Positions 37,868 through 43,996 of a stretch of 64,000 nt of DNA are shown here, piece by piece. The stretch's first letter is position 1, and every line of letters begins with the position of its first letter. The position numbers were made by a program, and so were the translations under genes. Source of the DNA: Exophiala sp. HKRS030 (taxonomy: Eukaryota > Ascomycota > Eurotiomycetes > Chaetothyriales > Herpotrichiellaceae); assembly GCA_023897205.1 (NCBI GenBank), contig JAHWDD010000001.1:868001-932000 (forward strand). The letters run 5' to 3'. The notes below the pieces were generated by a model. It saw nothing but the letters and a program-made list of their open reading frames with translations. It made no database searches and was not told the origin of the DNA.

Positions 37868-40800
37868 TTACATCATCTTAGTACCAGCAAATTCGCTCCA
37901 GCTCTTGACTTCTGCCGGAATACCGTCCTTTCGGGGCAGTTTCGCGTTCATGCATTGAGCAAACAACAAAGCAGTCTAAAGGAAAAGGGTCAGCTAATTG
38001 CGCACACGGGCAGAGAGGGACAGAATGTGACAACACTTACCTTTGGTTCCATGAACAGTGGTACTCCAAAGTCAACAGCATTCCGCCTCATAACGTAGTC
38101 TTCGTCAACTAATGTCTTACCCCTATTCTTTGCCAGATTGAAAACACCCCTGATGTTGTATTTCTGGAAGACCTTTCGTAGCTCGTTCTTATCCGTCTTT
38201 GGGAATTCAATCACCTCGATCGACACTCCTGATTTTGAGAGATGCTGCTTCACCTCGTTGCTGGCAGCAAGAAAGTTGTATCCGAGAGGTCTGAGGTATT
38301 CAACAATCTTTGGCAGCTCGGGCAGCTCAGTGGATCCACCGAGAAGGATACCCTCGCCAGGCTCCGGCATTCGGAAATTCATTGTCGACTGCAGGGATGC
38401 CCAGTATGCCTCAACGAGGTCTTGACCGAAGCAGGCGATCTCACCGGTACTGCTCATCTCGACGCCCAAGAAAGGGTCTGCACCGGCCAGGCGAGTCCAC
38501 GAGAATTGCGGAACCTTGGTGGCTACGTAGTCACGTTTCTCCGCCATAAGATCACGAGGCTCGGGAACATCGTTGTCCACCAAGGCCTTTGTAGCTGTAT
38601 CAATGAAGTTGGTACCGAGAACCTTGCTGACGAACGGGAAAGATCGAGAGGCTCGGAGATTGCATTCGATGACCTTGAGAGCTGGTTCTTCGCCGGGCAC
38701 ATCGGCCTTGATGATCTGCATGTTGAAAGGACCAGTGATGTTCCATGCCTTAGCGACTTTCTCAGCAATCTGCTTGACTCGACTCATCACGCTAGCTTCG
38801 AGATTGACAGGGGGTAGGACCAGGGTGGCGTCACCCGAGTGAACACCTGCATTTTCGATGTGTTCCGACACGGCGTGCAGAATGAGTTCTCCCTTAGATG
38901 CCACGGCATCCACGTCAATTTCTTGTGCTCCGTCAATAAATTTGGTGATGACTACGGGGTGATCTGGAGAAACAGCGGAGGCAGACTCCAACTTGTCCTT
39001 TAGCTCGGCTTGCGAGTGGATGACCGACATAGCAGCACCGGACAGAACGTAAGAAGGTCGGACCAGGACGGGATAACCAACAGAATCAGCAAATGCTTCA
39101 GCCTCGTCAACAGAAGTAAGCTCTTTCCACGCAGGTTGATCCACTCCAATCGAGTCAAGGATCTGGGAAAATTTGTGGCGATCTTCAGCCTTGTCAATGT
39201 CCTTGGGATCCGTACCGAGAACCTTCGCGTGGCCTTCCTCTTGGAGTCGGAGTGCGATGTTTTGGGGCAGCTGACCGCCCACACTGACCACAACGCCTGT
39301 TGCACCCTCCATTTCGTAGATATCCATAACACGCTCATATGACAACTCTTCAAAGTAGAGCTTGTCTGCCGTATCGAAATCGGTGCTGTACGTCTCTGGG
39401 TTCATCTGGATGCAAAAGCAAAAATACAGTCAGTAGAAGTAAAAAAAGAAGAGATGCAAGAAAGTAAAATAAGAAGGGCTAAATGTGGTCAGACAAAAGG
39501 ATTGGACGATGTCGTCGAGAATGAATGGGTGAAAAGCGACGATGTCGATCGTGTGACTTGTCGAGATCCAGTAAGAGAGAAGAAATGGATACGTGAGAAT
39601 CGACAGCGTCGATCGTGTGACTTGTCGAGATCCAGTAAGAGAGAAGAAATGAATACGTGAGAATCGACAGCGTCGATCTTGTGGCTTATCGAGGTCCAGT
39701 AAGAGAGGAGGAACAATGCTAGGTAAATGTAGATCCAAAAAAGGTCCTGGTATAAAGCGAGCCTAGACGAGCTACGAGCTCGACTGGGCGGCGGCGAGAG
39801 CGGCGACAGCATTGCGATGGCGCTCTGTTCTCTGGTGGCGAAGGAGATTGCTGTTGTTGTGGAACCCAAGGTTACAGGGAAAACACTTGTAGGGGTTATT
39901 GGCCTCTTGCGATTTTCTCTTATGTTTGGCCGTCTTCTCATGGTCCTGTAGCCTCTGCTTGGTGCCGAATGATATATTGCAGCGGTGACAATGGAAGGTC
40001 TTCTCAGCCAGAGCCTTTTCGATGCGGTCGGCTTGGTGCTTTGCGTCTCTTCCTGGATTGTTGGCTCGGGAACGAGCGACTCGTTCGCTGGATTTGCCGA
40101 TATACTCATCATAGTTCTCTGCCATCTGCTGATAGTGCCAGTCGGCTTTAAGCTGTACCTTCTTCTCCTGCTTGTCTTTTTCAAGGTCTTCAAGTTGCTC
40201 TTCAGTAAGGTCGAACTCGCCACGAATGGTCTCGTTGACAGCAGGGTGGGAGCATAAGCCGTCATATTCCAAAGTGTCTCGGTCCCAGAGGCAAAGATGA
40301 AGACATCCCCAGTCTCCTCCCTTTGGCGAGTACATGGTCCAGAAGATGAAGGCTAATGCTGCTTCAAGGGCGACGAACAAAAGCCGCCAGATGGGGATGT
40401 ATCTGACTGGTGGCATTGGTCTCCAACAGAGAAGCCCTTTGTGGACGATTGAGAAGCCCTCATCCAGCTTGGCTGCAACTCGAGAAGGAAGATATTTGAG
40501 AGCATCATACTGATTCAGGCGAACGATGGCACTACCATTCTTGTTTGTTCCGGAACCAATATAGACTGCAGGCCGACAACCAGGTTTCTTGAGGACGACT
40601 GCATAGATACCCCAGCATGGGACCAGACAGACGGGTAGGCCTTCAAAAAATTCGATGCCAGGTGCATCAGCACTTTGCATAGTATCCCACAGTTCAGGCG
40701 CGAATTCAAGGCCAGCCTTCAAGGCTATTTCTTCGATGGCATCTTGGCTTGTGAAGAAGCGAGCAAAAAAAGGTGACTTCCCAGATACAGGCATGCCATT

Positions 40801-43800
40801 GAGTGTTGCCCAGATGGCCAGACACAAAGTCTTGACTATGTCGTCGAGCATCAAGGGATGCTTTGACTCGTCGACTTGATCAGGAAGGCCTTCCATAGAA
40901 GAATCGACAGCGTCCATTTCGTGGCTTGTTGTGGAGACTAATTACCAAAGTGTAGTGTCAAGAATCACCGATGGTGATTAAGCAGACTGTTGAGAATAGA
41001 ACTGTATCGAGTGACACGATCGAAAGGACTTCTTGTCTAGGAGGATCGTCGATGTGTGAAGAGTCTTGAAATGACCGGTGGTGATTAAGCAGACTGTTGG
41101 GAATAGGACTTAATCGACGCCGACGAAAGGACTTCTTGTCTAGGAGGATCGTCGATGTATGAAGAGTCTTGAAATCACCAGTGATGATCAAGCAGACTGT
41201 TGGGAATAGGACTCAATCGACGCCGACGAAAGGACTTCTTATCAAGAAGGATTGCTGATGGAAAGTGTCTTGAAATGACCGGTGGTGATTAAGTGTCTGG
41301 AATAGGACTGTACCGAGTGACACGATCAATGGACTTCTTGTCAAGAAGGATTGCTGGTGGAAAGTGTCTTGAAATGACCGGTGGTGATTAAGTGTCTGGA
41401 ATAGGACTCAATCGACACGGTCGAAAGGGTATGAAACAAGCAATTTCAATCCGACCAAAGCGTCGCAGCCAGATCAAAGAGAGTGGTTTGGAGAGAAGAG
41501 AAGAGAGAAGAATCTGTCGAAGAAAACACATCTCAGGTAGGTGGCGTGTTGCAGCAGGAAGGTGCGTCCGAAATTTAGTGGGAAGGTGGGAAGTGAGTAG
41601 GAAGGTGCGTCCAAAATCCAGCCAGAAGTGCTTCCAATGGGAAGTACCGAAGTTTCAGATAACCAGAGTTTAGAGTCCAGAGTCCAGAGTCCAGAGTCCA
41701 GAGTCCAGAGTCCAGAGTCCAGAGTCCAGAGTCCAGAGTCCAGAGTCCAGAGTTCAGGGCCAGAGTCCAAGTACTATCCAGCCTGGCGCAAGAGGGAGAA
41801 TGGAAGGAGCATCAAACACCAGATGCAGCGAAGCAAGTAAAAGGGGTACTTACGTTGATCATGACGGTCTTGTGACCCATATTCCGGAGTGCTAGAGTGG
41901 CATTTACAGCACACCAATCGAACTCAACCGACGAACCAATACGATAAACACCAGAGCCGAGGATGATCGTACCATGATCATCGAAGGTAACGTCATGAGA
42001 AGATGCGTTGTAAGTGGTGTATAGATAGTTCGTGTCTGCAGGGAACTCGGCGGCAAGAGTATCGATCTTCTTGACCCACGGCCTGATACCAAAGCCTTGT
42101 CGCCGAGCTCGAACCTCGCCCTCGGTAGACTTGGTGTACATGCCAATCTGCTTGTCGGAGAAACCTTGCCTCTTCGCCTTGAGCATGAGCTCGTGCTTGA
42201 TTTCAGCCAGAGACCCAATTTCTTGGATCTCGATCATGGTGTCTTTCAGGTTCTGTAGCTTGTGGAGGAACCACTTGTCGATCTTGGTCAGATCGTGGAT
42301 CTTCTCGACGGAGTAGTTCTCGTGGATCATGGCCTGACCCACAGCTAGCCATCGTCGGTCAGTAGGGTTTCGTAGCGTATCGTCGAGATCTTCGAACTTG
42401 TCACCCTGAAAGCCGACGTATCTAGGGTCGACCTGACGGATGGCTTTCTGGAAAGACTCTTCGAACGTGCGACCGATGGCCATGACTTCTCCGACCGATT
42501 TCATGGCGCTACCGATATCGCGCTTGACATGTTGAAACTTTGACAAATCCCAACGAGGGATTTTGACAACAATATAGTCTAGACTGGGCTCGAAATTCGC
42601 CGTTGTCGTCTTGGTCACGGCGTTTGGCAGCTCAGGCAGTGTGTGCCCAAGGCCGATCTTTGCTGCAGTGTAGGCGAGAGGATATCCAGTGGCTTTGGAG
42701 GCCAAGGCAGAGGATCGAGAAAGACGGGCGTTGACCTCGATGACACGATAGTCGAGTCCATCTGGTTGCAGGGCATACTGAACGTTGCACTCGCCAACCA
42801 CACCAAGATGTCGAACGATTTTGATGGCTGCAGTTCGGAGCATGTGATATTCCTCATCGCTCAAGGTCTGGCTGGGAGCCACCACAATACTGTCACCAGT
42901 GTGGATTCCCAGGGGATCAAAGTTCTCCATGTTGCAGACTGTGATGCAGTTGTCCTCGGCATCACGGACGACTTCGTACTCAACCTCTTTCCATCCTTTG
43001 AGCGACTTTTCCACCAGGATCTGAGGGGAAAGAGACAAGGATCGCGAGGCAAGATTGCTCAATTCTTCTCGGTTTCCGGCAAAGCCAGACCCGAGACCAC
43101 CCAAAGCGTACGCAGATCGGACAATGATAGGATAACCAACTTTCTCCGCGGCGTCCAAAGCTTCGTCCACAGTGCCGACAGCAATTGACTGCGCGATAGG
43201 GATGTTGATCTCGTTCAATGCTTTGGCGAACAAGTCTCGATCCTCACTGACTTCCAATGTGCGAATACTAGTCCCGAGTACTTTGACTCCATATCGTTCA
43301 AAGATACCCATCCTGTTCATCTGTACACCCAGATTGAGACCAGTCTGGCCACCAAAGGTGAGGAGGATACCATCGGGCTTTTCTCTCTCGATCACATATG
43401 TAACATACTCGGGCGTGACGGGTAGGTAGTAGACCTCGTCTGCGAGTTTGTGGTCGGTCTGAATGGTCGCAATGTTCGGGTTGATAAGGACGGATTTCAC
43501 ACCAGCTTCTTTGAGAGCCTTGAGAGCTTGAGAGCCTGTCACAAACATGTTAGTTTCTAGTATCTTCGTGTGCTAGCAGCTCTTTTGCCATTCCAATCGC
43601 AGCCACCAAGGCTCGTGCTAGCTTTGCGCTAGATATTGAGCTCAACTCACCTGAGTAGTCAAACTCTCCTGCTTGTCCAATGCTAAGACCACCACTCCCA
43701 ATCACGATCACCTTAGACACGCCCACCAAATTTTTTCCTGGCTCAACCGCACCACTCTCGAGGTAGGCCTCGGGGCGGGGAGCGCTGTCGACCGCTGCAT

Positions 43801-43996
43801 ACCGCTTTGTAGATCGGGTAAACTTTCTGACCTGCTGCCATGAGGGTGTCTTGGGGCTCAGAAGGTGTTGTCTGGTCGCAATTGGCGCAATGCGAGTACG
43901 GATCGAGAAAGCTCGGTGAGAGGGACATGGTTTAGGTGCGCAGTCTCGCAGCAGAAGACCACTGGCCTGTCGGAGGACTCGAGTGGAGGACGCCAT
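37868..43996 (-). CDS. Arginine-specific carbamoyl-phosphate synthetase, large subunit (split by a 2.4-kb intron)
   Basis: Four exons (43996-43651, 43535-41854, 39405-38041, 37975-37868) encode 1,166 residues, normal for fungal Cpa2-type enzymes. A basic, Ser/Arg-rich N-terminus looks like a mitochondrial transit peptide. The first synthetase half starts at [21 protein letters not shown] and includes [20 protein letters not shown] and the ATP-grasp segments ([35 protein letters not shown]). The second half resumes [20 protein letters not shown] and contains GGQLPQNIA and [15 protein letters not shown]. It makes carbamoyl phosphate from ammonia, bicarbonate and 2 ATP, with a separate glutaminase subunit. 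Introns 1 and 3 are 115 and 65 nt; intron 2 is 2,448 nt and carries a nested ORF. After splicing, the residue before NPETYSTD is Met, where related enzymes have Tyr or Cys. Confidence 0.95.
39485..39725 (-). repeat. 64-bp tandem repeats that duplicate the nested ORF's 5' end
   Basis: Three units of 64 bp (common point GTCGAT at 39544, 39608 and 39672) lie just downstream of the nested ORF. Their content resembles the ORF's own first codons: GAATCGACAGCGTC is shared with 40901-40914, and the region around 39488-39530 resembles 40816-40860. Translated, both give a HPxxLDDIVxxxCL pattern. They form a direct repeat flanking the ORF. Confidence 0.8.
39772..40917 (-). CDS. GIY-YIG nuclease-like protein with two C2H2 zinc fingers, nested in an intron
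   Basis: Intact 381-codon ORF on the same strand as the host gene. Residues 103-105 are GIY and 119-121 YIG, in the order WGIYAVVL...PAVYIGSGT, followed by a conserved-type Arg (R133, IVRLNQY). A hydrophobic helix near 176-193 carries a Glu (E185, [10 protein letters not shown]) in the place of the metal-binding catalytic Glu of the GIY-YIG fold. A charged helical linker (about 235-300) leads to two C2H2 fingers with CxxC-x12-HxxxxxH spacing: C310/C313/H326/H332 and C345/C348/H361/H367. A nuclease plus DNA-binding fingers is the design of a site-specific homing endonuclease. The N-terminal 100 residues match nothing I know. The assignment of the active site is by pattern only; activity is not shown. 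Confidence 0.75.
   Translation of the reverse strand: MDAVDSSMEGLPDQVDESKHPLMLDDIVKTLCLAIWATLNGMPVSGKSPFFARFFTSQDAIEEIALKAGLEFAPELWDTMQSADAPGIEFFEGLPVCLVPCWGIYAVVLKKPGCRPAVYIGSGTNKNGSAIVRLNQYDALKYLPSRVAAKLDEGFSIVHKGLLCWRPMPPVRYIPIWRLLFVALEAALAFIFWTMYSPKGGDWGCLHLCLWDRDTLEYDGLCSHPAVNETIRGEFDLTEEQLEDLEKDKQEKKVQLKADWHYQQMAENYDEYIGKSSERVARSRANNPGRDAKHQADRIEKALAEKTFHCHRCNISFGTKQRLQDHEKTAKHKRKSQEANNPYKCFPCNLGFHNNSNLLRHQRTERHRNAVAALAAAQSSS
40945..41425 (-). repeat. Five imperfect tandem repeats of about 99-108 bp
   Basis: Units share TCTTGAAATGACCGGTGGTG and GACTTCTTGTC blocks. The common point falls at about 40970, 41078, 41181, 41282 and 41381. They lie upstream of the nested ORF within the intron. 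The last two units share changes (GTGTCTGGAATAGGACT) that mark them as a younger subfamily. Role unknown; a promoter array or recombination by-product is possible. Confidence 0.85.
41672..41755. repeat. 7-bp minisatellite (AGAGTCC)n
   Basis: About 11 copies of the heptamer AGAGTCC, nearly perfect, inside the large intron not far from its 5' splice site. A 7-bp unit reads through all frames and gives a 7-residue repeat on the minus strand, which is a repeat artefact rather than a gene. Confidence 0.9.

What the first reader, a model, noticed from the sequence alone, without database searches (positions are those of the whole stretch)
39406..41853. Homing-endonuclease-like gene inside a spliceosomal intron of a nuclear arginine-biosynthesis gene
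Seen: a 2,448-nt intron with GTAAGT donor, CTGAC branch candidate and CAG acceptor, in phase 0, splits the carbamoyl-phosphate synthetase large-subunit gene and contains an intact same-strand ORF with GIY-YIG and C2H2 motifs. All other introns here are about 45-240 nt. Known: GIY-YIG homing endonucleases are typical of group I introns in organelles and phages; self-splicing is what makes those insertions tolerable. Inferred: here the spliceosome provides the tolerance, giving a nuclear selfish intron that could spread by cutting intron-less alleles.
Basis: partly seen in the sequence, partly recalled or inferred. Interest (0 to 1): 0.95.

Follow-up and report, generated by a model that had tools for sequence, protein, structure and literature searches.

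The report
Selfish homing intron in fungal nucleus
A predicted 2.4-kb intron in a fungus's nuclear arginine-making gene holds an intact gene for a predicted DNA-cutting enzyme, and relatives of that enzyme turn up at the same point of the same gene in distantly related fungi, so it is likely a selfish intron that would spread by cutting intron-free copies while the cell's own splicing machinery would remove it from the message.

Summary
CPA2 (arginine-specific carbamoyl-phosphate synthase large chain) is interrupted after residue 676, phase 0, by a 2,448-nt GT..AG stretch holding a 381-aa same-strand ORF with a predicted I-TevI-like GIY-YIG fold and two C2H2 fingers.

Relatives of the ORF came back inside host-gene models in 18 of 138 proteins retrieved: 13 in CPS genes (11 CPA2, 2 of the paralogue URA2), 3 in aconitase, 1 in Hsp70, 1 in a DED1-type helicase. 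Nine of the 13 CPS models break or resume within one residue of the window's boundary. Host and ORF identities are uncorrelated; two close hosts (CPS 92.7% identical) carry ORFs only 46% identical at the same site. In this genome two other CPS paralogues carry short ORF-less introns there and one URA2 copy is empty; its E. xenobiotica counterpart is filled.

Best reading: a cellular "spliceosomal homing intron". The kind was named in 2025 for mirusviruses (PMC12768974); eight paper searches listed no report in a cellular nuclear genome. Splicing, cleavage and homing are inferred. The boldest open reading is that ORF loss leaves ordinary short introns behind, making homing a source of spliceosomal intron gain.

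The parts
43651..43996 (-). CPA2 exon 1 (carbamoyl-phosphate synthase, arginine-specific, large chain)
   Evidence: spliced translation
41854..43535 (-). CPA2 exon 2, ends ...KTVMIN
   Evidence: spliced translation
39406..41853 (-). 2,448-nt phase-0 intron, GTAAGT..CAG, inserted after CPA2 residue 676
   Evidence: no Rfam match up to E 1 in 39300-42000
41848..41853 (-). 5' splice site GTAAGT
   Evidence: sequence
39429..39434 (-). candidate branch site ACTGAC
   Evidence: sequence; role inferred
39406..39408 (-). 3' splice site CAG
   Evidence: sequence
39772..40917 (-). 381-aa ORF, predicted homing endonuclease (stop included)
40240..40620 (-). predicted GIY-YIG nuclease domain (residues 100-226)
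39814..39996 (-). two C2H2 zinc fingers (residues 308-368)
   Evidence: Pfam
41663..41769 (.). 7-bp tandem array, 15.4 copies, in the 5' part of the intron
40963..41392 (.). 103-bp tandem array, 4.2 copies, upstream of the ORF
39544..39707 (.). 64-bp tandem array, 2.6 copies, downstream of the ORF
38041..39405 (-). CPA2 exon 3, begins MNPETYSTDFD (target-site half)
37868..37975 (-). CPA2 exon 4

Best explanation
This is likely a mobile spliceosomal intron of a fungal nucleus: a GT..AG intron in CPA2 that carries its own predicted GIY-YIG/C2H2 homing endonuclease, which would cut intron-free copies of the conserved CPS site so that repair copies the intron in, while the spliceosome would remove it from the CPA2 message. 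Shown here: the intact ORF and its predicted fold, the uninterrupted CPA2 frame after removal, the recurrence of relatives at the same codon boundary of CPA2 in gene models of other ascomycete genera and at the homologous boundary of URA2, relatives in aconitase, Hsp70 and DED1-type helicase models, discordance between host and ORF, and a filled/empty pair of URA2 genes. Inferred: that the zinc fingers aim the nuclease at the stretch coding (V/I)M(I/V)NxNPETxSTD; that splicing is exact; that spread is by double-strand-break repair, across species as well as within them; and that targets shift between paralogues and to other conserved genes.
Confidence: 0.8

Rival explanations
1. The endonuclease gene is a passenger that invades spliceosomal introns already present at these positions; the introns are old and not themselves mobile.
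For: ORF-less introns at the same boundary in CPA2-2 (350 nt) and URA2-C2 (284 nt), and at the aconitase EYHG boundary in both own mitochondrial-type copies (265 and 627 nt), where the Zymoseptoria model carries the ORF (P0134).
Against: URA2-C4 has no intron at the site, although its E. xenobiotica counterpart is filled; the frame of URA2-C2 is open for 600 codons on either side of this one intron; the aconitase QWDR site, filled in P0130 and P0133, is empty in both own copies, and the own DED1-type match lies in a 717-aa open frame.
Confidence: 0.3
2. An ordinary nested host gene, or a domesticated nuclease, in an old intron, inherited vertically with CPA2.
For: One copy found in the genome; the 46-row tree does not reject a sister relation of the two Exophiala ORFs.
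Against: Same site in different classes and in a paralogue, other host genes, uncorrelated divergence, AU rejections in the 20-row set.
Confidence: 0.06
3. An introner-like or reverse-spliced intron, with the nuclease only a hitchhiker.
For: Long introns at the homing-type sites of several genes of one genome.
Against: The window, CPA2-2 and URA2-C2 introns share no more than their exon edges and roughly the first 20 nt (75% over 44 nt at best) plus chance-level pieces (aconitase introns not compared); repeat use of one boundary points to a site-specific cutter.
Confidence: 0.05
4. A dead relic or an annotation artefact.
For: No expression data.
Against: Intact 381-aa frame; a deposited E. oligosperma protein differing at 1 of 381 residues (P0001); conserved predicted catalytic residues; confident model.
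Confidence: 0.04

Closest known systems
Mirusvirus spliceosomal homing introns, 'shintrons' (PMC12768974; abstract and passages seen)
   Same: Spliceosomal GT-AG introns with a nested endonuclease gene (132 of 334 are GIY-YIG), specificity for a target gene, no group I/II signature; homing inferred, not shown, in the passages seen.
   Different: There in virus genes, mostly virion morphogenesis; here in nuclear housekeeping genes (CPA2, and in relatives URA2, aconitase, Hsp70, DED1-type helicase) of fungi, with C2H2 fingers. The terms 'fung' and 'zinc finger' have 0 occurrences in that paper's main text.
Group I introns with homing endonucleases (I-TevI in phage T4, fungal mitochondria, nuclear rDNA; recalled and from search listings)
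   Same: GIY-YIG nuclease fold in part of them, insertion at conserved positions, spread across species.
   Different: No ribozyme found; intron borders are those of the spliceosome; the host is a nuclear protein-coding gene.
Fungal inteins such as the PRP8 intein (recalled)
   Same: A homing endonuclease in conserved codons of nuclear protein-coding genes of fungi.
   Different: Removed at the protein level by self-splicing; here the removal would be at the RNA level by the host.
Nuclear GIY-YIG relic of Ustilago maydis (PMC7593156; abstract and outline seen)
   Same: GIY-YIG homing endonuclease gene in a fungal nuclear genome.
   Different: A single, apparently non-functional copy of mitochondrial origin that truncates its host gene.

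Membership tests
Spliceosomal homing intron (shintron) | GT-AG borders and splice signals, frame restored on removal | tested here: met
Spliceosomal homing intron (shintron) | Nested gene for an endonuclease of a homing superfamily | tested here: met
   381-aa ORF, predicted GIY-YIG fold
Spliceosomal homing intron (shintron) | No group I/II intron signature | tested here: met
   no Rfam match up to E 1 in 39300-42000
Spliceosomal homing intron (shintron) | Specificity for a target gene and site | tested here: met
Spliceosomal homing intron (shintron) | Splicing from the transcript | not testable with these tools
   no RNA data held
Spliceosomal homing intron (shintron) | Endonuclease cuts the intron-free site and the intron is copied in | not testable with these tools
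   needs cleavage and crossing assays; discordance of host and ORF is indirect
GIY-YIG endonuclease superfamily | GIY-YIG fold with Tyr, Tyr, Arg and Glu conserved | tested here: met
GIY-YIG endonuclease superfamily | Match to the Pfam GIY-YIG profile | tested here: not met
   none of 40 members at E <= 0.01, nor the window ORF at E <= 1; so a divergent branch by fold, not a member of the Pfam family by sequence
Mobile group I intron | Group I catalytic RNA | tested here: not met

The most novel reading that the evidence does not exclude
Fungal nuclei host a widespread family of spliceosomal homing introns that attack conserved codons of core genes (CPA2, URA2, aconitase, Hsp70, DED1-type helicase), jump between paralogous targets and between fungal classes, and, on losing the nuclease gene, leave ordinary-looking short introns behind. 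That would make homing endonucleases a source of new spliceosomal introns, caught in one genome with a filled, two emptied and one untouched copy of the same site.
Probability: 0.35. Interest if true: 0.95.

Novelty: new variant of a known kind. Interest (0 to 1): 0.86.

Why it matters
Homing endonucleases were thought to need self-splicing introns or inteins to be tolerated in genes. Here the host's own spliceosome would do that job in a cellular genome, as was proposed in 2025 for giant viruses. It offers a directly testable route by which spliceosomal introns are gained and move between species, and a case of nuclear selfish DNA aimed at the same codons in many ascomycetes.

Tried and rejected
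Group I/II ribozyme: no Rfam match. Pfam GIY-YIG: none in 40 members. Foldseek against PDB: weak for the whole model (1ln0 at E 1.3); the second look by VIA-align gave the I-TevI match. PDB by sequence: the rows shown are zinc fingers (60 of 118, 60 of 287). Scans of genome contigs and viral contigs with the family profile: 55 and 30 pattern matches, no relative. ORF traces in the short introns of CPA2-2 and URA2-C2: none, best E 0.73; in the aconitase introns: none, best E 0.49. Overhangs of the 120 listed proteins (152 found) were printed where over 12 residues and read by eye, and 10 of 120 were scanned with Pfam: one host piece (Hsp70, P0093); others could have been missed. P0135 was first taken for a member with a Gly-rich tail; its tail matches DDX3X/DED1 (E 1.8e-6), so it is counted as a host model. 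Results against the reading: in the 46-row tree the AU test did not reject the two Exophiala ORFs as sisters (p 0.764, the held tree 15.9 log units better), the Pleosporales pair gave p 0.067, and the URA2-pair test did not finish there. The 20-row set and its groups were chosen after seeing the first tree, so its p-values are optimistic. P0136 is a partial model: 42.2% to the window ORF and 61.9% to Monosporascus in 147 common columns; the 74.6% is from a shorter local alignment. The 49 comparisons include three species pairs counted twice, once for each CPS half. P0122 and P0129 sit at other places in CPA2 (after residue 734 and before 622). Paper searches on the matter; among the papers listed, PMC12768974 alone says in title or abstract that spliceosomal introns carry homing endonucleases; the rest I saw as listings, except PMC7593156 (abstract and outline); the library lacks most subscription papers.

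Full report
What is there. The window lies on a 7.9-Mb contig of a 59.8-Mb genome. On the - strand CPA2 has exons 43996-43651, 43535-41854, 39405-38041 and 37975-37868 and codes for 1,166 aa. Its second intron, 41853-39406, is 2,448 nt; the other two are 115 and 65 nt. It starts GTAAGT, ends CATCCAG and has ACTGAC about 24 nt before the end. It holds a 381-aa ORF (40917-39772) flanked by tandem arrays of 7-, 103- and 64-bp units. The open frame is longer than in any of 2,000 mononucleotide shuffles. Reading from exon 2 into the intron meets 16 stops, so CPA2 from this copy would need the intron removed.

Where the relatives are. A first search found 152 relatives (120 listed); the organism names shown are fungal. 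Since candidates must be of similar length, long fused gene models were out of reach, so a second search used the same 381 residues with filler to raise the length limits (7,994 candidates scored) and a third used the GIY-YIG part of one fused model. Together 138 distinct proteins were retrieved, and 18 contain host-gene sequence: 11 CPA2, 2 URA2, 3 aconitase, 1 Hsp70, 1 DED1-type RNA helicase. Automatic gene prediction seems to have run host exons and the ORF together. Of the 13 CPS models, P0121, P0123, P0124, P0125, P0126, P0128, P0131, P0136 and P0138 stop or resume within one residue of the boundary of the window (CPA2 676/677, URA2 equivalent); P0127 and P0132 resume within 13 residues; P0122 and P0129 are elsewhere in CPA2 (coordinates; sequences read by eye for P0128 and P0131, where BLAST overran). 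The named hosts span Sordariomycetes, Leotiomycetes, Dothideomycetes and Eurotiomycetes (classes recalled from the genus names). Two aconitase models share one site (before QWDR), a third has another (after EYH). Glarea lozoyensis has members in two genes (P0129 in CPA2, P0135 in the helicase). Length limits favour hosts of CPS size, so the share of CPS is not an unbiased frequency.

Not vertical. CPS and ORF identities in 49 comparisons show no correlation (Spearman -0.007). Neocucurbitaria and Didymella share 92.7% in CPS and 46.2% in the ORF, at the same site. In 147 common columns the ORF of a Chaetothyriales isolate is 42.2% identical to the window's and 61.9% to that of Monosporascus, of another class. 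In a 20-row set the AU test rejects the Chaetothyriales pair (0.018), four Eurotiomycetes (0.0009), the Pleosporales pair (0.0005) and the two URA2-borne ORFs (0.011) as clades; set and groups were chosen after the first tree. The larger 46-row set is less clear: Exophiala pair 0.764 with the held tree better, Pleosporales pair 0.067. The 46-row tree puts the three aconitase-borne ORFs together (90/74; two of them 99/90) and E. xenobiotica's URA2-borne ORF with Elasticomyces' (98/88).

A natural series in one genome. The genome carries two CPA2 copies (89% identical over 456 residues), two URA2 copies (87.9% over 1,198) and a duplicated neighbour (79%), as after hybridisation or genome duplication. 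At the boundary the window CPA2 has the 2,448-nt intron with ORF; CPA2-2 has a 350-nt intron, AAT|GTAAGT..GAAAAG|TAC; URA2 on contig 2 has a 284-nt intron, AAT|GTGAGT..CTAAG|TAT; URA2 on contig 4 reads straight through, AAC GAT. No ORF trace was found in the short ones. Around the intron of URA2-C2 the frame is open for 600 codons on either side. E. xenobiotica's filled URA2 is 92.2% identical to the empty copy and 86.4% to the other, so counterpart genes differ in occupancy. Both own aconitases are empty at QWDR but carry 265- and 627-nt ORF-less introns at the EYHG boundary, where the Zymoseptoria model carries its ORF. The own DED1-type match lies in a 717-aa open frame. Either the short introns are scars of lost homing introns or they are pre-existing introns that the endonuclease gene can enter; the data do not decide.

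Mechanism. Best reading: translation of the ORF (own promoter or retained transcript, unknown), binding through zinc fingers, cleavage of the intron-free site by the GIY-YIG domain, repair from the filled copy, and removal of the intron by the spliceosome. Everything after 'intact ORF, predicted fold, site recurrence, discordance' is inferred.

Known or new. Mirusvirus shintrons are the same kind of arrangement in viral genes; [quoted passage not shown] Eight searches of the open library listed no report for a cellular nuclear genome; subscription journals are mostly absent from that library. I file this as a new variant: a cellular, fungal spliceosomal homing intron.

Noticed in passing
G000 C1:0.91 Mb and C1:3.51 Mb; URA2 on C2 and C4: Genome of 59.8 Mb with duplicated CPA2, URA2 and a neighbour gene at 79-89% amino-acid identity, like a hybrid or duplicated genome; aconitase of the mitochondrial type also has two copies (C4, C12; identity to each other not measured).
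   Followed up: partly
window 39403-39405: The residue just after the insertion is Met in the window CPA2, Tyr in CPA2-2 and URA2-C2, and Asp in URA2-C4 and in the filled E. xenobiotica URA2 model; it may mark insertion or conversion events.
   Followed up: no
L022 1139-1765 and L023 1343-1607: Long ORF-less introns (627 and 265 nt) at the EYHG boundary of both own aconitase genes, where the Zymoseptoria model carries a relative of the ORF.
   Followed up: partly
window 40963-41392, 39544-39707, 41663-41769: Three different tandem arrays flank the ORF inside the intron; by eye the 284-nt intron of URA2-C2 also looks like a diverged doubling, which the repeat finder did not report.
   Followed up: no
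P0137 (protein): A family member of 764 aa with a long tail and further zinc-finger-like motifs and no host piece recognised, hinting at another architecture.
   Followed up: no
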